From: Novosphingobium sp. Chol11
GTDB taxonomy: Bacteria; Pseudomonadota; Alphaproteobacteria; Sphingomonadales; Sphingomonadaceae
Assembly (NCBI RefSeq): GCF_900218065.1
Contig: NZ_OBMU01000001.1
Location: 1,555,940-1,594,237, forward strand
Length of the DNA: 38,298 nt
Reading direction: 5' to 3'
Position 1 is the stretch's first letter. Each line of letters begins with the position of its first letter. This document shows positions 3,567 through 16,481 of the stretch, piece by piece. The translations under genes were made by a program, and so were the position numbers. The notes under the pieces were generated by a model. That model saw only the letters and a list, made by a program, of their open reading frames with translations. It was not told where the DNA came from and did not search any database.

Positions 3567-3878
3567 TCAATTTCCCATGAAGCGCTTGAAGCGGTCCCGG
3601 CCTTCCGCTTCGACGACGGCCTGTTCCGCGTTCGAGCATTCGTCCCCCCTGACCGAGCCGGCCGCGCAGCCCGCTACGATCTGGCGGGCTTCGTCGAGAT
3701 GCGCCGCGAAATAGGGTTTGCCGCGCGGCTCGGTCGCGGCCTGCGGCAGCGGCCGTGGCAGGGCGGAGATCGCCGTTGGCGCGCTCGGCGCGACAATGAT
3801 GGGGCGGAGCGTGAAGCCCGCGCCGAATCCGACGACCAGCGCGACGAGCACGGCGATCCATGCCTTTCCTTGGATCAT
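3567..3878 (-). CDS. TrbK-alt/EexN-like putative entry-exclusion protein
   Basis: The start is ATG 3878, preceded by AAAGGA, and overlaps the stop of the LysR gene (ATGA). The 103-residue product has one N-terminal membrane segment (about residues 5-25), then a periplasmic part with a Pro-rich linker. Its C-terminal motif (ARQIVAGCAAG, then DECSNAEQAV, then RDRFKRFMG) has two cysteines followed by an aromatic/basic end. This pattern resembles the alternative TrbK entry-exclusion family, which blocks redundant transfer into cells already carrying the element. The call is by motif and context; the protein is short and could be another small inner-membrane protein. Confidence 0.6.
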   Translation of the reverse strand: MIQGKAWIAVLVALVVGFGAGFTLRPIIVAPSAPTAISALPRPLPQAATEPRGKPYFAAHLDEARQIVAGCAAGSVRGDECSNAEQAVVEAEGRDRFKRFMGN

Positions 3879-4819
3879 GGCGGTTCCTTTCCCGATTGTT
3901 GAGCAGGCTGTGGCCCGGAGCCCGAGGGGAGCGAATATCGAGTGGCCACGAAATCGAGGAAACGACGCAGCACCGGGTTCTCGTTGTCGTCGCGCCAATA
4001 GCCGGAATAGCCGATGCGGCTGTGGCCGTTGGCTTCATGGATCTCGCGGAACAGGACGCCTGGCACCTGAATGCCGGCGGACGATTCCGCGAAGATTGCC
4101 AGGCGACCGCCGAGCGCGATGGAACTGATGACCGTATCCCGCCCGATGTCGTCCATGTCGATCTCGGGGGTGTAACCGGGGCTGCCCAGCTTCCCGAGTA
4201 GCAGGTTGCGCGTTTCAGGACCGGGATCGCGTTTGGTCAGAAGGAAGCGCTCGCCGGCGAGGTCTTGCCAATGGATGCGTTCGCGGGACGCCAGCGGATG
4301 ACCTTCGGGCATCACCACCAGATGGCGCTCGCTCCAAAGCGGCCGACTTCCGATACCCGGATAGAGCCGTTCGCCGATCATGATCGCGATGTCGAGCAGA
4401 CCGCTCTCAATGCCGGCCAGCAGCATGTCGCGATCCCGTTCGAAGCCCTGCACTCTGACAGCGGGAAAGCGTGCGCTGAAGTCGCTCAGCGTGGCGCGCA
4501 GGTTGCCGGCTGAGAAGGAGGTGTAAAAGCCTACCGCCAGCCGCCCGGTCTCACCCTTCTGAGTGGCTCGGACCCATTCGTTCAGCTCCTCAAACTCCTT
4601 CACAATCCGCTGGGCGGTGCGCAGGTAGGTCTTGCCGTTTGGCGTTAAGGTCGCCCCGCGCGTCCTGCGGTCGAATAGCGTTATCCCGAGCCGCTTCTCG
4701 ACTTCGATGATGTGTCGGCTGAGGGTGGCCTGCTTTATGTTCATGTTGCGTGCCGCCCGACTAAAGCTGCCTGCCTGTGCTGCCGCGAGGAGGTAGCGAA
4801 GTTGGCGTAGTTCGATCAT
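3875..4819 (-). CDS. LysR-family transcriptional regulator next to trb genes
   Basis: The start is ATG 4819. A GTG at 4840 is in frame but lacks a ribosome site. The 314-residue product starts MIELRQLRYLLAAAQAG, with the LysR helix-turn-helix in residues 1-60 (SFSRAARNMNIKQATLSRHI), followed by a periplasmic-binding-like effector domain. The family senses small ligands and usually controls neighbouring genes. It is co-transcribed with the TrbK-like gene by an ATGA overlap and runs towards the end of the trb operon. I infer a role in ICE transfer or exclusion, but the ligand cannot be read from the sequence. Confidence 0.85.
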   Translation of the reverse strand: MIELRQLRYLLAAAQAGSFSRAARNMNIKQATLSRHIIEVEKRLGITLFDRRTRGATLTPNGKTYLRTAQRIVKEFEELNEWVRATQKGETGRLAVGFYTSFSAGNLRATLSDFSARFPAVRVQGFERDRDMLLAGIESGLLDIAIMIGERLYPGIGSRPLWSERHLVVMPEGHPLASRERIHWQDLAGERFLLTKRDPGPETRNLLLGKLGSPGYTPEIDMDDIGRDTVISSIALGGRLAIFAESSAGIQVPGVLFREIHEANGHSRIGYSGYWRDDNENPVLRRFLDFVATRYSLPSGSGPQPAQQSGKEPP

Positions 4820-4866
4820 CCAGTTAATGCCGCCAGGCACCGCACAGCGTTTGAGCGAGGCGATGA

Positions 4867-5490
4867 TTATCCGAGTTGGTCAGCCCTGGTCAGACCCAAC
4901 CGATCGAGGTTTAGGGCCACAAAGTCCCAATCGATCGCGTTGCGGAGGATTTTATCCGCATAGTCGGGACGCGCATTGCGATAGTCGATATAATAGGCGT
5001 GCTCCCACACATCGAGGATGAGGAGCGGTGTCGCTCCGTGAGCCACCGGCGTATCCGCATCATGATAGGAAGTGACCTCAAGCTCGCCCTCTTTCAGATT
5101 GAGCGCGGCCCAACCGCTTGCGAAATGTCCGACAGCTTCCGCTTTCAGCTTCTCGATAAGGCCGTCAAGTGAACCGAAGCTCTCATTGATGAGACGCAGC
5201 AGCTCGCCGGTCGGCTCCTTTTTCTCCGGCGACAGGCCAAGCCAATAGAAGCTGTGGTTCCAGATCTGCCCGACCTGGTTGAACAGGCCCTTGGGGCCTC
5301 TGGCGGCCGTCAGCTCGATCAGTTCGACCAGCGATTTCCCCTGAAATTCGGAGTTGGCCGCCACCAGTTCATTCGCCTTCACGACATAGGCATTGTGATG
5401 CTTGCCATGGTGGAAATCGAAGGTCTCTGCCGAGATGATGTCTCCAAAAGCATCCTTCGCATAGGGCAGTGCAGGCAGTTCGAAAGCCAT
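4867..5490 (-). CDS. sodB: Iron superoxide dismutase
   Basis: This 207-residue protein has the complete Fe/Mn superoxide dismutase fold. The metal ligands are His27 (FHHGKHH), His79 (WNHSFYW), Asp160 and His164 (DVWEHAYY). Gln75 in GQIWNH sits at the position typical of the iron enzyme; the manganese enzyme usually places its Gln in the C-terminal domain. It converts superoxide to hydrogen peroxide and oxygen in the cytoplasm. The start ATG 5490 has a good site (GAGGAG, 6 bases away). It is the last gene of the SoxR-box operon that also encodes the RND pump, which fits a response to redox-cycling compounds. The family call is very safe; the metal is inferred. Confidence 0.95.
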   Translation of the reverse strand: MAFELPALPYAKDAFGDIISAETFDFHHGKHHNAYVVKANELVAANSEFQGKSLVELIELTAARGPKGLFNQVGQIWNHSFYWLGLSPEKKEPTGELLRLINESFGSLDGLIEKLKAEAVGHFASGWAALNLKEGELEVTSYHDADTPVAHGATPLLILDVWEHAYYIDYRNARPDYADKILRNAIDWDFVALNLDRLGLTRADQLG

Positions 5491-5517: not shown

Positions 5518-5847
5518 TCACGATGATGAAATCAGATTGGTCACGATGGCGAGCAGCAGGATGATTGCCGGCAGGATCGCCCTTCCTGGGGCACGAAGCG
5601 CGAGAGCGCTCCCGATCATGCCTGCTGTGATCGCGATGGCGAGAGCGGTGCCCAGCGTGCGCGTTGGGGCCACGACCACCAATCCTGCGGTAACAAGCGC
5701 CAGGCCCGCAAGCGCGCGGCGAAACCGCTGCGAGTAACCCCGACGCCCGTAACGATCGCGAACGGGGGCAGCAGGAATCCCGTGCTTGATCGCTCCCACG
5801 GTGAGCGCGGCTCCAAGGAGCCACGAAGGGATTTGGCCGGCGCTCAA
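5518..5847 (-). CDS. Small hydrophobic membrane protein (TTG start)
   Basis: The frame is open much further upstream, but that part is a shadow of the DoxX gene. The likely start is TTG 5847, which overlaps the DoxX stop (TTGA). This gives 109 residues with about four hydrophobic helices (for example WLLGAALTVGA and ALAGLALVTAGLVVVA) and a basic loop RDRYGRRGYSQRFRR. I do not recognise the family. Its size, overlap with the DoxX gene and membrane nature suggest a small partner of that protein. The gene lies 27 bases upstream of sodB. Confidence 0.6.
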   Translation of the reverse strand: MSAGQIPSWLLGAALTVGAIKHGIPAAPVRDRYGRRGYSQRFRRALAGLALVTAGLVVVAPTRTLGTALAIAITAGMIGSALALRAPGRAILPAIILLLAIVTNLISSS

Positions 5848-6236
5848 TCTTCCTCGCCTTCCCAGGGATTTGTCTCGCGGGAAGGCAAAATAGGCCAGCG
5901 CTGGTGCCGCAGCGTGCTTCGTCCGGTAATCACCAGAAGGACGAGAACGACGCCCGGTATAATCGCGTGGACATATTCGCCATTGCGGATCAGCGTTCCC
6001 GCGGCCGCGCACATGACGAGCACACCGAGCACGGCTCCAAGAATGCGCGACTTGCGGACGAACAGGAGCGCAGCGGTGCCGAACTCCAGACCAGCCGTCA
6101 CATAATGGAACCAGTCCGGGTAGCCCCACGTCGCATATTGCGCCTGGGTTCCTTCTGATGCCAGCAGATTGGTGACGCCGCCGATGACGAAGAACGCGCC
6201 CAGCAGCCACGCGAGGGCGGTGCGGAGGTGAGCCAT
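5844..6236 (-). CDS. DoxX-family membrane protein (MexG-like)
   Basis: The 130-residue product has four predicted membrane helices and the DoxX signature: LLGAFFVIGGVTNLL near the N-terminus, AGLEFGTAALLFV in the middle, and a third and fourth helix after it. It starts at ATG 6236, overlapping the stop of the outer-membrane efflux gene (TGATG). In Pseudomonas aeruginosa a DoxX-like protein, MexG, heads the SoxR-controlled mexGHI-opmD operon. Here the DoxX gene lies after the pump genes. Functional equivalence to MexG, reported to bind redox-active pigments, is an inference. Confidence 0.8.
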   Translation of the reverse strand: MAHLRTALAWLLGAFFVIGGVTNLLASEGTQAQYATWGYPDWFHYVTAGLEFGTAALLFVRKSRILGAVLGVLVMCAAAGTLIRNGEYVHAIIPGVVLVLLVITGRSTLRHQRWPILPSRETNPWEGEED

Positions 6237-7720
6237 CAGTTCCTCCGCTTGTCCAACGCAGGCGCTGTCAGCGCCACTGCGGTATTATCCGACTGCTGCG
6301 CGGTAAGTTGTCCGTTCTGCCAGCCGCCGCCAAGCGCCTTGAACAGATCGACCCGCGCGGAAGAAAGCCGCTGGATCGATCCGGCATAGGCACTGCGCGC
6401 GGACAGAAGATCAGCCTGCGCCACGAGCACGTCGAGATAGGCGACCGAACCGGCGCGATAGCGGAGATCCGCGAAGCGGTAGGCCTGCTCGGATCGCTCC
6501 TGCGCCTCGCGCAGCGCATCAAGCCGCTGCTGCTCGGTGGCGACCGTCGTCAACGCCTGCTCGACCTCCTTGAGCGCGGCCACGACCCGCCCATCGAAGG
6601 CCGCCAGCGATGCATCGCCCTGCGCCTCGGCCTGGCGGATCCGCGCGCGGGCAACAGCAATGTTGGGGAAGCTCCAGGAAATAAGCGGCCCCAGCGAGAA
6701 GGAGAAGGAGTCGCCGCCTCGCACGGTGTCGTTGCGGAAGAAATTGCCCGATCCGCCAAGGCTGATCCTCGGATAGAGATCGGCCGTCGCCACGCCGATC
6801 CGGGCGGTGTCGGCCGCAAGCTGCCGCTCGGCCTGCCGGATGTCCGGCCGCCGACGAAGCAGAGCCGCCCCGTCGCCGACCGGAAGTGCTGCCACAGGTT
6901 CCGGCGGCACCGAACAGGTCTGCGCGGCCTGGGGAACATCGCCGGGTGTCGTGCCGAGCAAGGCGGCCAACTCGAACAGCGCCACCTGCCGCTGCCCTTC
7001 GAGCGCCGGGATGGCCGAGCGCGCGGTAGCCGCAGCTGCGGCCGCCCGCTCGACATCGAGCTTGCCGACCGATCCGGCGCGTTCCTGTTCGGTGACGAGC
7101 CGGAGGCTGTCGCTGCTCGTCTTGTAGGATTGGCGGACCACGTCGAGCGCAAACGCAGAGGCGCAGGCGTTGAAATAGGCGCGGGTCGTCTCCGCCGCGA
7201 CGGTGACACGCACCGCGTCGCGCGCCGCCTCCACTGCGTCCGCGTCGGCACGAGCGGCGGCGATGGCCCGGCCGACGCGACCGAACAGGTCGACTTCCCA
7301 TGACAGCGACCCGCTGGCGAACTGCGACCATTGGGCATCGCCGAGATTGCTGGGGAAGCCCGTGGCGCCCGCACCCTGGACGCCGTCGCCATAGGTGACG
7401 CCACCATTGATGTTGGTCGAGGGCAGACGTCCAGCTCGGGCCTCGCCGAGCACCGCGCGTGCCTTGGCCAGATTGGCCGCGGCGACGCGCAGGTCGGTGT
7501 TGGCGGCGAACGCGCGTTCGATCAAACTATCGAGCGCGGGATCGCGGTAGAGCCGCCACCAGTCATCGGGGAGCGCCGCCGCCGGATCGAGGCCGGCTCC
7601 CTTGGTGACAAACGGCTCTGCCGACGCAACCGGGGTCGCGGGTCGCTCATAGTTGGGGCCAACGGCGCAGGCGGAGGCAAGAAGCGGCGCGAGGAGACCC
7701 AGGGGCTTGAGTTTACGCAT
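6236..7720 (-). CDS. RND efflux outer-membrane channel lipoprotein (NodT/OprM/OpmD type)
   Basis: The 494-residue product has a lipoprotein signal peptide (LLASAC, Cys18) followed by AVGPNYERP, the classical start of NodT-family outer-membrane factors. Two TolC-like repeats follow, with conserved parts such as RRPDIRQAERQLAADTARIGVA and the near-C-terminal FADLRYRAGSVAYLDVL. It forms the trimeric outer-membrane exit duct. Its start overlaps the end of the RND pump gene by 8 bases and its stop overlaps the DoxX start, so all are one operon. Length is normal. Confidence 0.93.
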   Translation of the reverse strand: MRKLKPLGLLAPLLASACAVGPNYERPATPVASAEPFVTKGAGLDPAAALPDDWWRLYRDPALDSLIERAFAANTDLRVAAANLAKARAVLGEARAGRLPSTNINGGVTYGDGVQGAGATGFPSNLGDAQWSQFASGSLSWEVDLFGRVGRAIAAARADADAVEAARDAVRVTVAAETTRAYFNACASAFALDVVRQSYKTSSDSLRLVTEQERAGSVGKLDVERAAAAAATARSAIPALEGQRQVALFELAALLGTTPGDVPQAAQTCSVPPEPVAALPVGDGAALLRRRPDIRQAERQLAADTARIGVATADLYPRISLGGSGNFFRNDTVRGGDSFSFSLGPLISWSFPNIAVARARIRQAEAQGDASLAAFDGRVVAALKEVEQALTTVATEQQRLDALREAQERSEQAYRFADLRYRAGSVAYLDVLVAQADLLSARSAYAGSIQRLSSARVDLFKALGGGWQNGQLTAQQSDNTAVALTAPALDKRRN

Positions 7721-10700
7721 GGACCAGCCCTCCTTCGGGCGCGGGCTTGTCTTGGGACGAGGCCTGACCTTCTGGGTCGACAGCGGCCTTGGGGCGGTGA
7801 TCGCCGGCTATCAGCGTGTAGATCGTCGGCAGCACGAACAGCGTGAACAACGTGCCGACCAGCATCCCCATCACGACGACGATGCCGATCGCGAAGCGGC
7901 TGTTCGCGCCTGCGCCGGCCGCGAACAGTAGTGGCACGAGGCCGGCCACCATCGCCGCAGTGGTCATCAGCACGGGACGCATACGAACGGCGGCGGCATG
8001 ACGGATCGCCTCTATCCGGCTCCACCCTTCCGAGTGCTGCATCTCGTTGGCGAAGGACACCATCAGGATACCGTGCTTGGAGATGAGCCCGATCAGCGTG
8101 ACGAGGCCGATCTGCGTGTAGATGTTGAGCGTGGTGAAGCCGAGATAGAGCGGCACCAGCGCCCCACAGACCGCCAGCGGCACGGTGACGAGGATCACCA
8201 GCGGATCGCGGAAGCTCTCGAACTGCGCGGCGAGCACGAGGAAGATCACGATCAGCGCGAAGGCGAAGGAGATGGTGAGCTGGTTGCCCTCATGCACATA
8301 TTGCCGGCTGTTGGAGAGCCAATCGACCGTCGTTCCAGGCGGCAGCGGCTGGCTATTCAGAAAATCGACCGCCTGGCCCATCGTCACGCCCGGCAGCAGC
8401 ACCGCCGAAAGCGTCGCCGAGTTCATCTGGTTGAACTGCGGCAGCCGGTTGGGCTGCGGCCGGATTTCGACATGCGCCACCGTGGAGAGCGGCACCAGCT
8501 TGCCCGAAGCCGCCTTCACATAGAACTGCCCGAGATTGTCCGGGGTCAGCCGCCGGTCCTGCGGCACCTGGGCGATCACGTCATAGGAGCGGTCGTGCCA
8601 GTTGAAGCGGTTGACGTAGTTTTCGCCGACCAGAACTGCCAGCGTATCGGCGATCTCGGACATGGTGACGCCCATCTCGCCGGCCTTCTCGCGGTCGATG
8701 GTGACATGCGCCTCGGGGCTGTCAAAGGCGAGGTCGCTGTCGACGAAGGCGAACAGGCCGCTGCCCCACGCCGCGCCCTTGATCCCTTCGAGCGTCTTGT
8801 AGATCGCCGGGAAATCATCAGCCGAACGGATGACCATCTGCACCGGCAGGCCGCCGCTGCCGGCAGGTAACGGGCTGTCCTGGAAGGCGGTCGCATAGAC
8901 CCCCGTGACGCCTGCCGTCCGACCGGCGAGTTCGGCCTGGATTTGATCGCCGTTGCGCGAACGCTCGGCCCAATCCTTCATCACGATGCCGCCGAAGCCG
9001 CCATTGGCGTTATTGTCGCCGCCGATGGCGAAGAAGCTCGCCGAAAATTCAGGGAACTGGTGGAAGATGCGCTCGACCTCGGCGCTGAACCGCGCCGTAT
9101 AGTCGACATTGGCATATTGCGGCGCCTTCGTCTGAACGAAGACATAGCCCATGTCCTCCTGCGGGGCCAGTTCGCGCTTGGCGCCGGAGAACAGCACCAC
9201 GATCACGGCGAGAACGGTGACACCGACGATCAGCACGGCCGCACGGGCGGCGAGTGTCTTGTCAAGCAGCCGCACATAGCCCTCGGTCGCCCGGTGCATG
9301 GTGCGCTCGACCGATTGCGCGAGCCTTCCTTCTCCCATTTTCGAGTGGAGCAGCTTGCCGCTCATCATCGGCGACAAGGTGAGCGCGATCACGCCTGAGA
9401 CGATCACCGATCCTGCAAGGGTGAAGGCGAACTCGCGAAACAGGGCGCCGGTAAGACCGCCCATCAGGCCGATGGGAGCGTAGACGGCCGCGAGCGTGAT
9501 CGTCATGGCGATGACCGGCCCGATGATCTCGCGAGCGCCGACCAAAGCGGCGTCCACGGGGGACAAGCCATCCTCGATATGGCGGTGGATATTCTCCACC
9601 ACGACGATGGCGTCGTCAACGACGAGGCCGATCGCCAGCACCATCGCCAGCAGAGTCAGCAGGTTGAGCGAGAAGCCGAAGGCCAGCATCAGCGCCGCCG
9701 TGCCGAGCAGCGAGAGCGGGATGGTGACGACGGGGATGATGACCGCACGGAAGGTGCCGAGGAACAGGAAGATCACGACGATCACGATGACGATCGCTTC
9801 GATCAGGGTATGCTCGACCTCCTCGATGGAGGCATCGACGAACCGCGCGACATCAAACACGCTCGTTACCTTGAGACCGGGCGGCGCGACGCGCTGAATC
9901 TCGGGAAGCAGGGCCTTGATCGCGCTCACGATCTCAAGAGGATTGCCGTCGGGTGTCGGCGAGACAGCGATCGTCACGCCGGGCCGGCCGGAGGCGAGAA
10001 AGCTGCCGTCGTAATTCTGCCCGCCCAACTCGATCGTCGCCACGTCGCGCAGGCGCACGACACTATCCTGGCCGGTCTTGAGCACCATCTGGCGGAACGC
10101 CTCGACGTCGCGCAGATCGGTTGACGCGGTGATGTTGATAGCGGTGTTCGATCCCTTGAGCTGCCCGGGTGCTGCCTGAACGTTATTGGCCCTCAACGCA
10201 TTCGCCACGTCGCTTGCCGTGAGGCCGCGCGCGGCGAGCTTCACCGGATCGACCCAGATACGCATGGCGAGCGGCGCGCCGCCGGTGATCGTCGCCGAGG
10301 CGACGCCCGGCACCGAGGTTATGAGCGGCTGTGCGACCCGCGTCGCGAAATCGGCCATCTGCGAGGCGGAAAGCGTTTCGCTCGCGAAGGCGATATACTG
10401 GATCGCCGAAGCACCATCCGTGATCTTGGCAATGACAGGATCGGTCACGCCCGCAGGCAGGCGGTATTTGACCTGCTGCACCTTGGCGAGGATCTCGGTC
10501 ATCGAGCGGTCGGCATTGGCGTTGAGCACCAGCTTCGCCCCGATGTGGCTCTTGCCCTGACTCGATGTGGAGGTGAGATATTCGATGCCGTTGGCAGTTG
10601 CGATGGCCTGGCTGATCGGCGTGGTGACGAAGCCCTGCATCACGTCCTGCGACGCACCGGGAAGGGCCGTGTCGATAGTGATCGTAGCGCTCTGCATCGA

Positions 10701-10814
10701 CGGATATTGCCGGATAGGCAGGCTGAACGTGGCGCTCAGGCCCACGAGCAGGATGAGCAGGCTGACGACGATCGACAGGATCGGGCGGCGGATGAAGATA
10801 TCGGTGAAGGCCAT
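7713..10814 (-). CDS. RND multidrug efflux pump, MexI-like inner-membrane transporter
   Basis: This is a complete 1033-residue HAE1-type RND transporter beginning MAFTDIFIRRPILSIVVS. It has 12 membrane segments and two large periplasmic loops. The proton-relay motif GLVVDDAIVVVENIHRHIE in helix 4 has the two essential aspartates. The repeat-2 segment TQIGLVTLIGLISKHGILMV is also typical. From memory of the family it is closest to MexI of the SoxR-regulated mexGHI-opmD system. It exports hydrophobic or redox-active molecules by proton antiport. It starts one base after the stop of the adaptor gene and overlaps the outer-membrane gene. The substrate cannot be determined here. Confidence 0.95.
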   Translation of the reverse strand: MAFTDIFIRRPILSIVVSLLILLVGLSATFSLPIRQYPSMQSATITIDTALPGASQDVMQGFVTTPISQAIATANGIEYLTSTSSQGKSHIGAKLVLNANADRSMTEILAKVQQVKYRLPAGVTDPVIAKITDGASAIQYIAFASETLSASQMADFATRVAQPLITSVPGVASATITGGAPLAMRIWVDPVKLAARGLTASDVANALRANNVQAAPGQLKGSNTAINITASTDLRDVEAFRQMVLKTGQDSVVRLRDVATIELGGQNYDGSFLASGRPGVTIAVSPTPDGNPLEIVSAIKALLPEIQRVAPPGLKVTSVFDVARFVDASIEEVEHTLIEAIVIVIVVIFLFLGTFRAVIIPVVTIPLSLLGTAALMLAFGFSLNLLTLLAMVLAIGLVVDDAIVVVENIHRHIEDGLSPVDAALVGAREIIGPVIAMTITLAAVYAPIGLMGGLTGALFREFAFTLAGSVIVSGVIALTLSPMMSGKLLHSKMGEGRLAQSVERTMHRATEGYVRLLDKTLAARAAVLIVGVTVLAVIVVLFSGAKRELAPQEDMGYVFVQTKAPQYANVDYTARFSAEVERIFHQFPEFSASFFAIGGDNNANGGFGGIVMKDWAERSRNGDQIQAELAGRTAGVTGVYATAFQDSPLPAGSGGLPVQMVIRSADDFPAIYKTLEGIKGAAWGSGLFAFVDSDLAFDSPEAHVTIDREKAGEMGVTMSEIADTLAVLVGENYVNRFNWHDRSYDVIAQVPQDRRLTPDNLGQFYVKAASGKLVPLSTVAHVEIRPQPNRLPQFNQMNSATLSAVLLPGVTMGQAVDFLNSQPLPPGTTVDWLSNSRQYVHEGNQLTISFAFALIVIFLVLAAQFESFRDPLVILVTVPLAVCGALVPLYLGFTTLNIYTQIGLVTLIGLISKHGILMVSFANEMQHSEGWSRIEAIRHAAAVRMRPVLMTTAAMVAGLVPLLFAAGAGANSRFAIGIVVVMGMLVGTLFTLFVLPTIYTLIAGDHRPKAAVDPEGQASSQDKPAPEGGLVHA

Positions 10815-10815
10815 G

Positions 10816-11949
10816 TCAGCGCACTCCCGCAGACACGAGCCGCGACACCTTGACCTCGGCGCCCGGCTGGACGCGAAGCTGGCCTTCCGAGACCACGACG
10901 TCGCCGGGCTTGAGGCCCTTGTCGATCACGACATCGTTGCCGATGCGCCGCCCTGTCTGGACCGGAACGATCTCGGCCTTGCCGCCCTTGCGGGCATTGC
11001 CGCCGCGGATGACGATCACGCTGTCGCCTTGCGGCGAGGTCTGGATCGCGGTCGCCGGCACGGTGAGCGCGCCTTGCTGGGGCGGCAGGACGAGCGAGGC
11101 CGTCACATACATGCCGGGTCGCAACGCGCGGTCGGGATTGGCGAGGATCGCCTGCACGGTGACGTTGCGCGTGTCCTCGCCGATCTTGGGTTCGACCGCG
11201 TTGACGCGCGCGGTGAAGGTCCGGCCCGGATAGGCGTCGCTGGTGACGGAAACGGTCGATCCCGGCTTCAGGCTCGCCAATTGCTGCTGGGGCAAGGCGA
11301 ACTCGACATAGAGCGAATCAAGCGCCGTGAGGGTGGCGATGGGATCGCCGGGATTGAGATACTGGCCGAGATTGATGCGGCGAATGCCGATCTCGCCGGA
11401 AAAGGGCGCGCGGACCTGCTTCTGGACCAGCCGCGCGTCGATCTGGCGCACGGCGGCCACAGCCTGATCGCGCTCGGCGCGGCGCTGCTGCAACAGTTCG
11501 CGCGGCTCCGCGCCGGTCGGGGCAAGCTGCTCGGAACGAGCGAGCTGGATGCCCGTAAAATTGGCTCTCGCCTGAGCGGCCTGCCGATCGGCGCGTTCGG
11601 GTCCGTCGAAAAGCTGAACCAGCAGCGCGCCGGTGCCCACCTGGGAACCGGCGGTGAAATTGATGGCCGACACCCGCCCGGCGGTTTCGGGCGAAAGCGT
11701 CACCTCGCGCACAGCCGTAAGCGTGCCGACCGCATCGAGCGTCGAGGGCACTTCGCGTGCGCTCACGAGGGTCGCAGCGACGGGCACCGCCTGCTGCTGC
11801 CAGCCTTGCCCCTGACCGCTCCGCAGCGTGCGCCAGAGGAACAAGCCGCCAAGAAGCACGACCAGGACGATGACGGTAATGATGATCGTGCGAGGCTGGG
11901 GACGCGCCGAGCGATCGCGCTCTGGGATGTCGTGAACGGAGTCGGTCAT
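10816..11949 (-). CDS. RND efflux periplasmic adaptor (membrane-fusion protein, MexH-like)
   Basis: The start is ATG 11949, with a strong site (GGGAGAGGG) and an ATGA overlap with the preceding gene's stop. The product has 377 residues: one N-terminal membrane anchor (about residues 20-38), a barrel-sandwich domain in two halves (EVTLSPETAGRVSAINF and VRAPFSGEIGIRRINLGQYL), an alpha hairpin between them, and a beta-barrel plus membrane-proximal domain (LRPGMYVTASLVLP). It links the pump to the outer-membrane duct. An upstream extension to 12006 is possible but runs over the neighbouring gene. Confidence 0.93.
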   Translation of the reverse strand: MTDSVHDIPERDRSARPQPRTIIITVIVLVVLLGGLFLWRTLRSGQGQGWQQQAVPVAATLVSAREVPSTLDAVGTLTAVREVTLSPETAGRVSAINFTAGSQVGTGALLVQLFDGPERADRQAAQARANFTGIQLARSEQLAPTGAEPRELLQQRRAERDQAVAAVRQIDARLVQKQVRAPFSGEIGIRRINLGQYLNPGDPIATLTALDSLYVEFALPQQQLASLKPGSTVSVTSDAYPGRTFTARVNAVEPKIGEDTRNVTVQAILANPDRALRPGMYVTASLVLPPQQGALTVPATAIQTSPQGDSVIVIRGGNARKGGKAEIVPVQTGRRIGNDVVIDKGLKPGDVVVSEGQLRVQPGAEVKVSRLVSAGVR

Positions 11950-12638
11950 GATACCCTCTCCCGGCTGACGAACAGCGGGGCCGAGAAGTGCATTGACTTC
12001 AGGCACCCCGTCTCGCGCAGTGGAGGGCTGGAATCGAGTAACGCGGGCAGGCGGAACAGCATATTACGGATTTCCTTCGGGGGTTTCTGTCGCTCACGGT
12101 CATGCGCGCCGAGCACATCATTGAGGGCGGCCACAGAGGCACCTATGTGGTCCGGCGCTATGTCCATTGAGCTGTCGTTCGATCGGTCGCCGCCGGGTTC
12201 CGGCCTCAATCTCACGGCGAGACCGATAGCGTCTTGAGCGTCGCTACAATCACGGCCGCTCGCGTCCGAGAAACGCTGCGCGAGCGGTTCCGAACCTTGG
12301 AGCGCTCCGGTGAGGACGGAGCTGGTTTCCGATCCAAACTCCCCGATGCCCTGTTTCGCGAGAAACAGTCGCGCAGACAGCAGCAATCGAGGGTCTAGCT
12401 CATCCCATTCGCTGTGCTCGGGCCGGGAGCCGGACCTGCCGGCACTCCACATGGCGACACAGCGCAGCGCCTCAAGCTGAGGATGAGCAAGGGGCCTTGC
12501 AACGCTGCGATCGAACAAGATCCGCAAAAGGCATCTGTTGTTTTCAGCTTTTGCGACCCGCCGACGATGGCGGGCATCGTCGACGCCGATCAGCAGCGCC
12601 GTTCGCTCAAGCTCGGTGAGAACCGGAAGGCCGTTCAT
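11946..12638 (-). CDS. Hypothetical protein, first gene of the SoxR-box efflux operon
   Basis: I take ATG 12638, with GGAGG about 10 bases upstream; the frame is open to a GTG at 12707. The 230-residue product begins MNGLPVLTELERTALLIGVD and continues with a basic helical segment (DARHRRRVAKAENNRCLLRILFDRSVARPLAHPQLEALR). It has no signal peptide or membrane helix. The middle and end look less ordered (Ser, Arg and Pro rich). I do not recognise a family. The stop overlaps the ATG of the adaptor gene (ATGA), which argues for a real, coupled gene. It could be a regulator or adaptor of the operon, or a passenger ORF. Confidence 0.6.
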   Translation of the reverse strand: MNGLPVLTELERTALLIGVDDARHRRRVAKAENNRCLLRILFDRSVARPLAHPQLEALRCVAMWSAGRSGSRPEHSEWDELDPRLLLSARLFLAKQGIGEFGSETSSVLTGALQGSEPLAQRFSDASGRDCSDAQDAIGLAVRLRPEPGGDRSNDSSMDIAPDHIGASVAALNDVLGAHDRERQKPPKEIRNMLFRLPALLDSSPPLRETGCLKSMHFSAPLFVSRERVS

Positions 12639-13000
12639 GCCGAACAAACCTCCGCCCGCGCCGCATCGCGGTGGACACGGAGCATGGAAAGTGGGCCTGC
12701 CAGCCATACCCGGTTGCGTGGGGTTTTCTCACCAGGGCGGCGCAAATGGCTGACAGGCCGGCGAAAGCCGGCAACAGCAAGGGGGCATCTACTGCCGTTG
12801 CACGGCTTCCACCAAAGACGAGACGACGGCATCCATTTGGTGCGCCTTATGCCGCGTCGGTCCCGTTTCCCGAGATCAACAGACTTGGCCTCGGAGCGGG
12901 CCGGATCGGGCAGTCTCGTCTTCGTTTCGCACAATGAGATCATGTCGGCTTCGCATTGGTGGGCTCCGCCTGTGAGGCTTGCGGAAAAGGGCCGACTCAC
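12639..13000 (-). other. Long transcribed leader with base-paired arms between the SoxR-box promoter and the first gene
   Basis: About 360 bases separate the predicted -10 element from the first likely start codon. Read as minus-strand RNA, the arms at 12696-12707 and 12746-12757 can pair over 12 positions. The single mismatch on the plus strand becomes a G-U pair on the minus strand. A nested stem (12714-12718 with 12741-12745) lies inside. A neighbouring perfect hairpin at 12757-12772 has six-base arms GCCGGC and a four-base loop. I see no convincing gene. A 102-codon frame ending on the next ATG is discussed among the rejected items. A structured leader RNA is an inference. Confidence 0.4.
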
Positions 13001-13031
13001 TTACTACAACCTCAACAATAGTTGAGGTCAA
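13001..13031 (-). promoter_or_regulatory. SoxR-box promoter for the efflux/sodB operon
   Basis: An 18-bp operator CCTCAACAATAGTTGAGG at 13010-13027 matches the form of the SoxR box (E. coli soxS: CCTCAAGTTAACTTGAGG), with perfect outer arms CCTCAA/TTGAGG. On the minus strand it sits between a -35 TTGACC (13031-13026) and a -10-like TAGTAA (13006-13001). The spacer is exactly 19 bases, the over-long spacing characteristic of SoxR/MerR-activated promoters. The arrangement is superimposable on the soxS promoter. It lies 17 bases upstream of the soxR start, so binding could also control soxR; a weak plus-strand candidate is TTGCGG (12979), 17 bases, TACTAC (13002). Confidence 0.85.
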
Positions 13032-13043
13032 GGGATTTCTGCC

Positions 13044-13514
13044 GTGAGGGATCAGCATCAGACGCTCACCGTCGGGGACGTCGCGAAGCGCAGCGGCGTG
13101 GCGATCTCCACTATCCATTTCTATGAATCGAAAGGTCTAATCGAGAGCTGGCGATCGCCCGGGAATCAAAGACGCTATCCGCGGCAGATACTGCGCAGAA
13201 TCGCAATCATTCGGATTGCGCAACGGGTGGGCCTTCCGCTTGCCCTCGTAAAGGAGCATCTTGATCGGTTTCCGACGGGGCCGATTTCAAAACGTCAATG
13301 GCACCAATTGACTCAAGACTGGCGCGCCATGCTCGATGAACGGATCACCAGCCTTACGCAGCTTCGCGATCAGTTGGGAAACTGCATTGGCGGCGGCTGT
13401 CTTTCTCTCAAGGAGTGCCCGTTGCGTAATCCCGACGATACCTTGGGGCAAGAGGGCTCAGGAGCGCGACTGCTGACTGAAGGGAAGGAGGGCAAAACTC
13501 CGCAGGCAGTATAA
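13044..13514 (+). CDS. soxR: SoxR-type MerR regulator lacking one [2Fe-2S] cysteine
   Basis: The 156-residue product starts at GTG 13044 (AAGGG, 9 bases upstream). The N-terminal MerR helix-turn-helix (TVGDVAKRSGVAISTIHFYE) is intact, followed by wing and dimer helix. The cluster-binding loop reads CIGGGCLSLKECPLRNPDD. In SoxR proteins the motif is CX2CXCX5C (CIGCGC...C). Here Cys114, Cys119 and Cys125 are present, but the second cysteine is Gly117 (codon GGC where TGC is expected). SoxR senses redox-cycling agents through oxidation of this cluster. The regulator is divergent from the RND/sodB operon and next to a perfect SoxR box. SoxR identity is secure from the surrounding sequence; whether it binds a normal cluster is doubtful. 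Confidence 0.9.
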   Translation: MRDQHQTLTVGDVAKRSGVAISTIHFYESKGLIESWRSPGNQRRYPRQILRRIAIIRIAQRVGLPLALVKEHLDRFPTGPISKRQWHQLTQDWRAMLDERITSLTQLRDQLGNCIGGGCLSLKECPLRNPDDTLGQEGSGARLLTEGKEGKTPQAV

Positions 13515-13764
13515 AGGAGCAGCTCCGAAGGCCAAGCGATCGTGCTCAAGAGAGACGACGGCAATTATCTCCCGATACACCCCCCAAATCTGCCGGACTT
13601 CCCTATTCGTTGCCGCTATTTCGCACCTGAGCTTACAAACGACACTATTGCCGGGTTGATATCTTTTCTGACCGTCCATTGATCGAGCAAAGTAGATGCC
13701 TCGACATCCGATAGGGCGACCACACGGGCCACTTTATGATGGTGCGACGCTCCCCATCGTCCGC

Positions 13765-15117
13765 TCAAGCCGCTAGAGCTTCCGTCTCTCCTGGCTGCAC
13801 CACAGGTGTCAGGAATCGGATAAGCGCCGCCTTTCGCGAACCGCGATCAAGGGCATAATGGGTATGGGACAGCACGGCCCCATTCAACAATGCCTGAATA
13901 TAGCCCGACACCGTATCGGCGGCCATAACGAGCGCCGCATCGAGCGTATGCACATAGCGGCTCGTGATCGAACCCGAGGAATGGCCGAGCAACGCCGCGA
14001 TGGTGATCTCGGTGAAGCCCAGATCGTTCGCGAGGCTGGCGAAGCTGTGCCGCAGCACATGCGCGGTGAGGTCCGCCAGTTCCGTCCCGCCGAAAATCTT
14101 CTCCCAATGCCGCGGGAAGCTGCCGAACGGCCCGTCCGCGTTCCTCTCGCCCGGAAACACATAGGGGCTGTCGCCGTCCATATCCCGTTCGTCGAAATAG
14201 TCCGCGATGGGCAAGCCCATCGGGCGAACGGATTGGCCCTCCTTCGTATCCTCGAAGCGGAAGGCGCTTCCTACTGTGTCGATCTCGGCCTTTCGCACCT
14301 CGATGATCTCGCCGCGACGGCAGCCCGACATGGCGATCAGCCGGATGATGTCGACGGTGCGCGTATAGCGTTCGTCCTCGGCCGCTTTGGCGAGGATGCG
14401 GCCGAGCGTCCGATACTCGTCCTCGTTCAGGCGACGCTTCCGCACCACGTCCTTGGGCTTGCGGACACCGTGAGCGGGATTGTTCTCGATGATACCCAAC
14501 TCGTCCCGCGCATAGGTGAAGATGCCGCCCAGCAGGCCGACCGTGCGGCTCGCCGCCCCAAGGCCACCCCGGACAATGGATTTGCCGCGCAGCTTCTTCG
14601 TCTTCTCCGTGGAGCGCGTCTTGCCAGCCATGATGTCCTTCATCATCGCCGTCACGTCCGCCTTGGTGACGTGCGTGACGCGCTTCGAGCCGAGCAGCGG
14701 AATGATGTGGCGCGTGATCCGGCCAAGATCGGTGATCTTGGTGCTGGCCTTCTTGGGCCGGCCGCCCTTGCCGAGAACCCGGCCGGCTTCCAGTTCCGCC
14801 ATATACAGTTCGCACAGTTCCTTGACCGAGATCGCCTTGCGGGCGCTATTCCGATCTTCGAGCGGATCGTTGCCTTTGGCGACGTCGGCCAACGCCTGGA
14901 TCGCCAGCGTCCGCGCCTGTTCGGCGGTGACGGTGCCGTGGCGACCGAGTTTCATCCGGCGCCGCACATTGTTGGCGTTACGGTAATCGACAAAATAGGT
15001 CCGCGTGCCGGAGGGCAGCACGAACACGCCGAAGCCCTTCAGATCGCTGCACCAAACGGTATATTGCCGGTCACGCGGATCGGCTTTGTCGACGACGGTT
15101 TTCGTCAGCTTTGGCAT
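13765..15117 (-). CDS. Tyrosine recombinase (integrase) of the ICE
   Basis: The start is ATG 15117 (GAGG upstream); a GTG two codons earlier is also possible. The 450-residue product has an N-terminal arm-binding domain of DUF4102 type (to about residue 90), a SAM-like core-binding domain and a C-terminal catalytic domain. Catalytic residues visible are Arg267 (SGCRRGE), His353 and Arg356 (HVLRH), His379 (LLGHSS) and Tyr388 (SRYVH), so it looks active. It lies at the right end of the conjugative block, about 180 bases from a tRNA-Arg 3' fragment, and presumably integrates the element there. Tandem 11-bp repeats lie directly upstream of its start. Confidence 0.93.
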   Translation of the reverse strand: MPKLTKTVVDKADPRDRQYTVWCSDLKGFGVFVLPSGTRTYFVDYRNANNVRRRMKLGRHGTVTAEQARTLAIQALADVAKGNDPLEDRNSARKAISVKELCELYMAELEAGRVLGKGGRPKKASTKITDLGRITRHIIPLLGSKRVTHVTKADVTAMMKDIMAGKTRSTEKTKKLRGKSIVRGGLGAASRTVGLLGGIFTYARDELGIIENNPAHGVRKPKDVVRKRRLNEDEYRTLGRILAKAAEDERYTRTVDIIRLIAMSGCRRGEIIEVRKAEIDTVGSAFRFEDTKEGQSVRPMGLPIADYFDERDMDGDSPYVFPGERNADGPFGSFPRHWEKIFGGTELADLTAHVLRHSFASLANDLGFTEITIAALLGHSSGSITSRYVHTLDAALVMAADTVSGYIQALLNGAVLSHTHYALDRGSRKAALIRFLTPVVQPGETEALAA

Positions 15118-15142
15118 ATGCACCTCGCTAGAGCGGGTCCAG

Positions 15143-15280: not shown

Positions 15281-15295
15281 GCGTTGTAGTTCTAG

Positions 15296-15340
15296 CTCCG
15301 AAGGCAAAGGCCGCACGTTCGAATCGTGCTGGGTGCGCCA
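15296..15340 (+). other. Attachment site: 3' fragment of a tRNA-Arg(CCG) gene (copy 1)
   Basis: The 45-base segment begins in the anticodon loop (CTCCGAA) and runs through a well-paired T arm (GCACG, TTCGAAT, CGTGC) to the acceptor 3' strand and encoded CCA. The 5' half of a tRNA (acceptor GCACCC, D arm) is absent, so this is not a functional tRNA gene. A second copy lies at 19846-19890. It differs only in the T-stem, where both strands change together. I read this copy as the junction between the ICE and the small prophage-like element. Confidence 0.8.
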
Positions 15341-15410: not shown

Positions 15411-16481
15411 CTAATTTCGGCGGTTGAAAGCTTCCAGAGCCTCGCCTTGAAAATCGGGATGATGATGCGCGTAAAGCTCGGTCGTGCGGCTGTCTGAGTG
15501 GTCGAGCCAGCCCCCGATCTGGAACAGCGGCACTCCCTTCTGCGCGAGCCAGGTGCCGCAGGTATGACGCAACGTGTGTGGAGTGACGCCTGACAGTTTG
15601 GCGTTCTTGCAGGCGGTGCCGAAGCTCCCGCTCTTGCCGTCGCCAATGTCGATGATGCGCCGTCCCTTGTCGTGGATCACATAGCCCAGATCACCATGCC
15701 GCCGCTTGTGCGCGAGTCGCAGGAAGGTGAGCAGCCGATTCGGAATGGGCTGGCGACCACGGCGCTTGCTGGTCTGCCCCTTCACCTTTCCTTCATCGCT
15801 GTGCTTGCGGAAGTCGATCAGCTTGTTTTTCAGATCCACTTGCGGCCAGCGCAGATCAAGGATCGCCTGCTTGCGCTTGCCGGTATAGAGGCCCAGCACA
15901 ATGAATAGCGGCAGATAGAAGCGCACATCACTGCGCCCCGTTCGCGCCGCATTCAGCAAAGCCGCCGCTTCCGCACGGGTAAGCCAGCGATCCTTGCTGT
16001 CGGGCTTGTCCGGGAGCCATACCGGAACGGGCCGGGTCAGTACTCCTTCGCTGTGGGCATAGTTGATGGCGGCGCGCATGGTGGATAGTTCCCGGCGCAC
16101 GGTGGCGACCGCCTTCCCCCTCTCCTTCTGGTAGCGCTGGCAGGTGCCTTTCGTGATGCCATCGACCATGACGCCAAGCCAGAACGGGACAAGCGCCTTG
16201 ACCGCCTGCTTGATCCGCACCGGGTCAGCCGCCGTGTCCGCGTGATGCTCGACATAATAGGCGAGTGCGTCGGTCACTAGGAGTTGGCTCGGTTCTCGCG
16301 GCCCGGAAACTCTTTGACGCTGCCGCTCTGCGATGAACTGCGCGAGGGCCTGTTCTGCGTCCCGCACATCTGCATGACCAGTCGAGCGCTTTCGTGGGCG
16401 TCCCTGCTCATACCACTGGATATAGAAGCAGCCCCTCTCCTCGATCCACTTGAGGTAGGCGCCGCGATTCGGTCTTGGCAT
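15411..16481 (-). CDS. Tyrosine recombinase (integrase) of the 4.5-kb prophage-like element
   Basis: This 356-residue phage-type integrase starts at ATG 16481 (AAAGGA upstream). Catalytic residues visible are Arg203 (YTGKRKQA), His302 and Arg305 (HTLRHT), His328 (WLDHSD) and Tyr337 (TELYAHH). The N-terminal part (residues 1-60) carries a small basic domain typical of phage integrases of the same general class. It is unrelated in detail to the 450-residue integrase next door, although both seem to use the same tRNA gene. It lies 70 bases inside the left attachment copy. The gene overlaps the upstream regulator gene by about 205 bases in another frame. Confidence 0.93.
   Translation of the reverse strand: MPRPNRGAYLKWIEERGCFYIQWYEQGRPRKRSTGHADVRDAEQALAQFIAERQRQRVSGPREPSQLLVTDALAYYVEHHADTAADPVRIKQAVKALVPFWLGVMVDGITKGTCQRYQKERGKAVATVRRELSTMRAAINYAHSEGVLTRPVPVWLPDKPDSKDRWLTRAEAAALLNAARTGRSDVRFYLPLFIVLGLYTGKRKQAILDLRWPQVDLKNKLIDFRKHSDEGKVKGQTSKRRGRQPIPNRLLTFLRLAHKRRHGDLGYVIHDKGRRIIDIGDGKSGSFGTACKNAKLSGVTPHTLRHTCGTWLAQKGVPLFQIGGWLDHSDSRTTELYAHHHPDFQGEALEAFNRRN

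What the first reader, a model, noticed from the sequence alone, without database searches (positions are those of the whole stretch)
13380..13425. SoxR homologue missing one of the four [2Fe-2S] cysteines (CIGGGC instead of CIGCGC)
The cluster loop reads Cys114-I-G-Gly117-G-Cys119 with Cys125; the canonical motif is CX2CXCX5C. The codon is GGC where TGC is expected, a single T-to-G change. All other SoxR features and a perfect SoxR box are kept. From work on E. coli SoxR, replacing a cluster cysteine abolishes normal activation. This protein may be a constitutive repressor, use another ligand, or sense something other than redox cyclers. The alternative is a recent inactivating mutation or sequencing error.
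Basis: partly seen in the sequence, partly recalled or inferred. Interest (0 to 1): 0.8.

Follow-up and report, generated by a model that had tools for sequence, protein, structure and literature searches.

The report
SoxR regulator missing a cluster cysteine
A SoxR-type gene regulator beside an efflux-pump operon, on what is likely a mobile element of a bacterium inferred to be a Sphingobium relative, lacks one of the four cysteines that hold the family's iron-sulfur sensor, so it would likely act as a redox-blind off switch; a near-identical database protein lacks a different one of the four.

Summary
The soxR gene at 13044-13514 encodes Gly117 (codon 13392-13394) where the second ligand of the CX2CXCX5C cluster motif belongs; the protein has only three cysteines. 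Of 234 database homologues retrieved (capped, best-scoring lists), 233 keep all four. The exception, P0001, matches the window's protein apart from the start residue and two positions: it has the cysteine missing here but Ser for another ligand, 119. Each of the two deviates at exactly one of 50 sites conserved in at least 95% of 218 other homologues, and that site is a ligand. This weakens the sequencing-error reading, but P0001's DNA could not be reached.

It is the genome's only SoxR over the family cut-off. A perfect SoxR box lies in a TTGACC-19-TAGTAA promoter-like arrangement pointing at an uninterrupted RND pump/DoxX-like/superoxide dismutase gene set. Published statements on E. coli say apo-SoxR binds DNA but cannot activate. 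The most likely reading is a cluster-free, DNA-bound, redox-blind repressor. Whether the loss was selected, is recent inactivation, or gave a new ligand is untested. No second Gly117 protein was seen. New variant of a known kind, moderate interest.

The parts
13044..13514 (+). soxR homologue, 156 aa, GTG start
   Evidence: TIGR01950 195.8 bits, cut-off 116.9
13383..13418 (+). cluster loop C114-I-G-G117-G-C119-LSLKE-C125; Gly117 codon at 13392-13394
   Evidence: alignment to 2ZHG
13010..13027 (.). perfect SoxR box CCTCAACAATAGTTGAGG
13005..13035 (-). leftward promoter-like arrangement TTGACC-19 bp-TAGTAA across the box
   Evidence: sequence; same layout in 21 pump-linked loci; activity not tested
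11950..13009 (.). 1060-base interval between box and adaptor start, no recognisable gene or RNA
10816..11949 (-). RND adaptor (start taken at the ATG at 11949; the longer ORF starts at 12006)
   Evidence: TIGR01730 238.5 bits, cut-off 94.9
7713..10814 (-). RND permease, 1033 aa
   Evidence: NF007133 1221 bits and NF033617 1203.5 bits, both below their cut-offs of 1763 and 1250
6236..7720 (-). outer-membrane efflux channel, NodT type
   Evidence: TIGR01845 314.2 bits, cut-off 210.05
5518..6210 (-). DoxX-like protein (weak match)
   Evidence: PF13564 22.7 bits, below the cut-off 26.3
4867..5490 (-). Fe/Mn superoxide dismutase
   Evidence: PF02777 109.7 bits and PF00081 77.8 bits
409..3331 (+). 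conjugation genes VirB8, CagX/TrbG-like, TrbI
13765..15123 (-). tyrosine integrase
   Evidence: PF00589 and PF13356

Best explanation
This is a SoxR homologue that has lost one of the four [2Fe-2S] ligands of its family and would therefore likely be a cluster-free, redox-blind repressor, predicted to stay on its box and hold the divergent efflux-pump/superoxide-dismutase promoter in the uninduced state. Shown here: the ligand loss; no other departure at 50 highly conserved sites; the perfect box in a 19-bp spacer arrangement; uninterrupted pump reading frames; no second SoxR over the family cut-off in the genome; a sibling protein with a different ligand lost. Inferred: absence of the cluster, retained DNA binding, no activation by redox cyclers, and that the pump genes 1 kb away are still served by this promoter. 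From published statements on E. coli SoxR: cysteine mutants lack a detectable cluster yet bind DNA, and apo-SoxR cannot activate. Two siblings with different ligands lost suggest, but do not show, that loss of sensing was favoured in this lineage.
For: Gly at a position that is Cys in all 219 database homologues aligned and all 104 other loci. One departure from 50 sites conserved in at least 95% of 218 homologues, and it is the ligand; P0001 likewise, at another ligand. 21 of 1003 possible single-base missense changes hit the three remaining ligands, so a second ligand loss by chance is about a 2% event. Box and 19-bp arrangement kept as in 21 of 21 pump-linked loci, 20 of them with TTGACC or TTTACC. 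PMC12818246, passages: mutation of any cysteine gives a stable DNA-binding dimer without detectable cluster; apo-SoxR cannot induce transcription. PMC4411124, passages: a soxR-divergent pump promoter with a 19-bp spacer, activated by oxidised SoxR, with auto-repression of soxR. Only SoxR over the cut-off in the genome.
Against: No spectra, binding or expression data. The published cysteine changes were in E. coli SoxR and the primary papers were not held. Reduced SoxR repressed mfsA only slightly in S. maltophilia, so the off state may differ little from having no SoxR. The 1060-base interval is longer than in 21 relatives (36-847), so the pump may no longer depend on this promoter. One departure from 50 conserved sites is not in itself rare: 150 of 218 homologues have none, mean 0.46, maximum 4. 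P0001's source and DNA are unknown. A protein that no longer binds DNA would look the same in sequence.
Confidence: 0.55

Rival explanations
1. Recent inactivation by drift: soxR is under relaxed constraint on this element, for instance because the pump is no longer driven from the SoxR promoter, and the protein is on its way to a pseudogene without any gain from the loss.
For: Unusually long interval between box and adaptor without recognisable content. soxR is accessory: 18 of 94 genomes of the genus, the window's own included, match at E <= 1e-25.
Against: No other conserved site is damaged, the frame and box are intact, and the sibling's only other change also falls on a ligand. One sibling is a small sample, and a very recent loss would also leave the rest intact.
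Confidence: 0.2
2. Changed sensing: the remaining three cysteines, alone or with another residue or water, hold a metal ion or an altered cluster, and the protein answers to a different signal or at a different redox potential.
For: Three of four ligands and the rest of the loop are kept in both the window's protein and P0001; P0001 has Ser, which can in principle bind iron (recalled). PMC12818246 notes that a Zn-bound form of SoxR is not formally excluded (passage).
Against: Gly offers no side-chain ligand and the protein has no spare cysteine. Cysteine mutants of E. coli SoxR lack a detectable cluster. No MerR-type metal family reaches its cut-off.
Confidence: 0.1
3. Sequence error: the Gly codon is an assembly or base-calling error, and the real gene is an ordinary SoxR.
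For: A one-base difference in a GGC-rich stretch; raw reads not available; P0001 has Cys at 117.
Against: P0001 lacks another ligand, so two errors on ligands in near-identical genes would be needed. The long pump frames nearby are uninterrupted.
Confidence: 0.1
4. Constitutive activator: the changed loop locks the protein in the active state, so the pump operon is always on.
For: Substitutions at I120 and G121, beside the ligands of E. coli SoxR, went with raised soxS expression and better growth in drugs (PMC7174635, passages). soxR changes recur in drug-selected mutants (PMC11047544 and PMC13231899, passages).
Against: Apo-SoxR is stated not to activate. The enriched soxR changes listed were at I120 and G121, none at a ligand (whether ligand codons were in that library is not known to me), and those lie in the DNA-binding part (R45W, R20L, R33C).
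Confidence: 0.05

Closest known systems
SoxR (TIGR01950), E. coli SoxR 2ZHG/2ZHH
   Same: Full-length family match, aligned over residues 7-146, SoxR box in a 19-bp arrangement
   Different: One of the four cluster cysteines is Gly; target is a neighbouring RND pump gene set, not soxS
soxR and RND pump locus of Novosphingobium sp. RL4 (NZ_CP141945.1)
   Same: SoxR 68% identical, permease 81% and adaptor 75% identical, box and promoter layout alike
   Different: All four ligands present; box-to-adaptor distance 217 bases instead of 1060
mfsA-soxR of Stenotrophomonas maltophilia (PMC4411124, passages)
   Same: soxR divergent from an efflux pump, one box, 19-bp spacer
   Different: Pump is of the MFS type; four cysteines conserved; induction by redox cyclers was measured
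P0001, database protein on a 3,516-base contig
   Same: Identical apart from the start residue and positions 117 and 119
   Different: Has Cys at 117 but Ser at 119, so a different ligand is missing

Membership tests
SoxR (redox-sensing [2Fe-2S] activator) | Match to the family model over its length | tested here: met
   195.8 bits, cut-off 116.9, model positions 1-141 of 142
SoxR (redox-sensing [2Fe-2S] activator) | Four cysteines CX2CXCX5C | tested here: not met
   CX2GXCX5C; only three cysteines in the protein
SoxR (redox-sensing [2Fe-2S] activator) | SoxR box between -35 and -10 of a target with a long (19-bp) spacer | tested here: met
   By sequence only:
SoxR (redox-sensing [2Fe-2S] activator) | Bound [2Fe-2S] cluster and redox-dependent activation | not testable with these tools
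   Needs purified protein and reporter assays
MerR/CueR/CadR-type metal sensors | Family-model score over the curated cut-off | tested here: not met
   MerR 40.1 of 150.85, CueR 48.7 of 147.4, CadR-PbrR 40.7 of 151.45 bits
SoxR-controlled RND/DoxX gene group (mexGHI-opmD type) | Adaptor, permease, outer-membrane channel and DoxX-like gene beside soxR | tested here: met
   the DoxX-like match and the permease are below their curated cut-offs
Integrative and conjugative element (carrier of the gene) | Integrase, relaxase, coupling protein and mating-pair genes | tested here: met
Integrative and conjugative element (carrier of the gene) | Matching attachment-site repeats at both ends | tested here: inconclusive
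   A 16-nt near-repeat flanks only the integrase; a tRNA-like 3' end at 15303-15340 has no second copy at up to 2 mismatches

The most novel reading that the evidence does not exclude
In this mobile-element lineage the SoxR iron-sulfur sensor has been removed more than once, by loss of different ligands, under selection: nature is converting a redox-activated switch into a permanent repressor while keeping its DNA binding and target operon.
Probability: 0.25. Interest if true: 0.65.

Novelty: new variant of a known kind. Interest (0 to 1): 0.45.

Why it matters
The four cluster cysteines were present in 233 of 234 SoxR homologues examined here, so a natural protein without one is a ready test of what the cluster is for. 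If it still binds and represses, a redox activator can become a plain repressor by one residue, and mobile elements can carry efflux operons with the inducer switch disabled. If it senses something else, it would be a new type of SoxR sensor. If it is only a dead gene, calling it a 'redox-sensitive activator' from the family score alone is misleading.

Tried and rejected
A scan of 84,980 species genomes for a non-cysteine codon at this place was spoiled by my own error: the pattern was one base short, so its second half was out of frame. Its three hits are not SoxR and the result says nothing. The scan could not be repeated under the cap.

A scan of viral contigs for P0001 found no relative. 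Protein searches limited to the loop gave no further Gly117 or Ser119 protein; they show cluster representatives at 90% identity, so hidden members may exist, and one search lists only the best 120 of 7881. Searches of the 1-kb interval: no repeats, no promoter-like or terminator-like site inside it, no Rfam family, no DNA relative of the interval in the plasmid set or in 396 other genomes of the family; one weak hit of its longest leftward frame to a hypothetical protein of Rhizorhabdus (39.8% over 38% of the query, E 8e-6) was not pursued. That the interval is the decayed remains of what lies there in relatives was tested against ten such intervals and not supported (best E 0.037 by translated and 0.22 by DNA comparison). 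Structure prediction was not run, because a model would not show whether a cluster assembles. Literature searches listed no paper whose title or shown abstract describes a natural SoxR lacking a ligand; the library holds open-licence papers only, I saw listings and not all texts, and one search returned crystallography.

Full report
What is there. The ORF at 13044-13514 on the + strand encodes a 156-aa SoxR homologue. It passes the NCBIfam SoxR model with 195.8 bits against a cut-off of 116.9. The alignment to E. coli SoxR 2ZHG puts Gly117 opposite the second motif cysteine, which is Cys122 in the numbering Cys119/122/124/130 given in PMC8063818 (passage). The protein has three cysteines in all, so no spare cysteine can stand in.

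How unusual it is. One search found 7881 homologues and listed the best 120; searches added loop-region matches. Of the 234 database proteins so retrieved, 233 contain the full motif and P0001 does not. In the alignment of the first 219 with the window's protein, 218 of 219 have all four cysteines in register. Of 105 genome and plasmid loci examined, 104 keep all four and the exception is the window's own locus. Ten loci were left out of that count beforehand: L001 and L032 (the window itself), L002-L006 (other MerR-type genes) and L028-L030 (random hits). The 105 are not all independent; some are the same gene fetched twice or near-identical alleles. Of the order-wide family search (186 of 396 genomes with SoxR) I read only part: the 30 loci that came with the search, the window's own among them, and 40 regions taken afterwards.

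The sibling protein. P0001 differs from the window's protein at the start residue (GTG, read as V in my script), at 117 (C for G) and at 119 (S for C) and nowhere else. It lies on a 3,516-base contig with no source given, whereas the window's contig has 2.55 Mb, so it is a different record; its DNA could not be reached. Taken at face value, each of the two proteins has lost one, but a different, ligand. Of 50 positions conserved in at least 95% of 218 other homologues, the window's protein departs at one (117) and P0001 at one (119), and both positions are invariant in those 218. For comparison, 150 of the 218 depart at none, with mean 0.46 and maximum 4, so a single departure is not in itself unusual; that it falls on a ligand, twice, is. 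In the window's gene 21 of 1003 possible single-base missense changes hit the three remaining ligands, so a chance second ligand loss has odds near 2%. This argues against sequencing error and against uniform decay, but it rests on one sibling of unknown origin.

Surroundings. A perfect dyad CCTCAACAATAGTTGAGG lies at 13010-13027, 16 bases before the soxR start. It is the only match in the window at up to 2 mismatches (0.07 expected) and the only place in the genome fitting CCTCAACWWWWGTTGAGG (looser boxes were not sought genome-wide). Read leftward it lies in TTGACC-19 bp-TAGTAA. Among the loci, 21 besides the window's own had both a box and an adaptor match; at the same fixed offsets all 21 have a TA-initial -10 and 20 of 21 have TTGACC or TTTACC (L048 has TTTTCC). 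Some of these are near-identical loci. Two further loci with a permease match only, L010 and L011, show no box at up to 3 mismatches. Leftward of the window's box lie an RND adaptor, a 1033-aa permease, an outer-membrane channel, a weakly matching DoxX-like protein and an Fe/Mn superoxide dismutase, each a single open frame. SoxR controls such genes elsewhere: mexGHI-opmD is named as its target in PMC11047544 (passage), and PMC13231899 describes a DoxX/RND group divergent from soxR (passage). The genome has one SoxR over the family cut-off; five other matches are below it. In the genus, 18 of 94 genomes, the window's own included, match this protein at E <= 1e-25, so soxR is an accessory gene there. 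The genus is inferred to be Sphingobium from one contig that matches a named record in length and match position.

Mobile context. To the left lie VirB8, CagX/TrbG-like and TrbI and, further left, a relaxase, a TraG-type coupling protein, a type II/IV secretion ATPase, the replication initiator RPA and DUF2840. To the right is a tyrosine integrase at 13765-15123. By gene content this is an integrative and conjugative element; the set resembles the Tn4371 group (recalled, not tested). Its ends were not established.

The interval. Between box and adaptor lie 1060 bases, against 36-847 in the 21 relatives. In two of those, L033 and L036, a DoxX-family frame occupies the place (PF13564 at 49.5 and 39.5 bits, cut-off 26.3); the window's weaker DoxX match lies at the far end of the operon. 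The window's interval showed no gene family in the frames scanned, no Rfam family, no repeats and no DNA relative in the plasmid set or the family genomes searched. Whether transcription from the SoxR promoter still reaches the pump is unknown.

How it most likely works. PMC12818246 (passages) states that apo-SoxR stays dimeric, binds the soxS promoter with KD about 1e-10 M and cannot induce transcription, and that mutation of any cysteine gives a stable dimer with strong DNA binding and no detectable cluster. The primary papers behind these statements were not held. PMC4411124 (passages) describes a soxR-divergent pump with a 19-bp spacer in which oxidised SoxR activates, reduced SoxR represses only slightly, and SoxR represses its own gene. 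From this I infer that the window's protein lacks the cluster, still occupies the box, represses its own gene and keeps the leftward promoter uninduced. Every functional step is inferred. A constitutive-on reading is less likely: in PMC7174635 the enriched soxR changes were at I120 and G121, beside but not at the ligands (passages; whether ligand codons were in that library is not known to me).

Why such a loss might spread. In E. coli, soxR and cluster-assembly mutants tolerated high zinc better (PMC12818246), an example of gain from a silent SoxR; it runs through soxS and cannot simply be carried over. Avoiding the cost of pump expression is another possibility. Neither was tested.

Verdict. 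The repressor interpretation is the most likely but unproven. The strongest new fact is the sibling with a different ligand lost. By descent this is a SoxR homologue; it should not be filed as a working redox-sensing SoxR, because the defining four-cysteine motif was tested and not met.

Noticed in passing
13521-13536 and 15294-15309: A 16-nt near-repeat (15 of 16 identical), one copy 6 bases after the soxR stop and one beyond the integrase; the only two places in the genome fitting AGCTCCGAAGGCMAAG. Possible attachment repeats.
   Followed up: partly
15294-15340: Looks like the 3' half of a tRNA gene (my reading), with no complete tRNA in the window and no second copy of 15303-15340 in the genome at up to 2 mismatches.
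   Followed up: partly
11950-13009: A stretch of about 1 kb between the SoxR box and the pump adaptor with no recognisable content; longer than in 21 relatives.
   Followed up: partly
15411-16481: A second tyrosine integrase next to the first, perhaps of another element.
   Followed up: no
13044-13514: soxR has 57% G+C against 65% for the adaptor-permease genes and 64% for the window, hinting at a different origin.
   Followed up: no
3875-4840: A LysR-type regulator lies beside the superoxide dismutase at the far end of the pump gene set; it could be a second controller.
   Followed up: no
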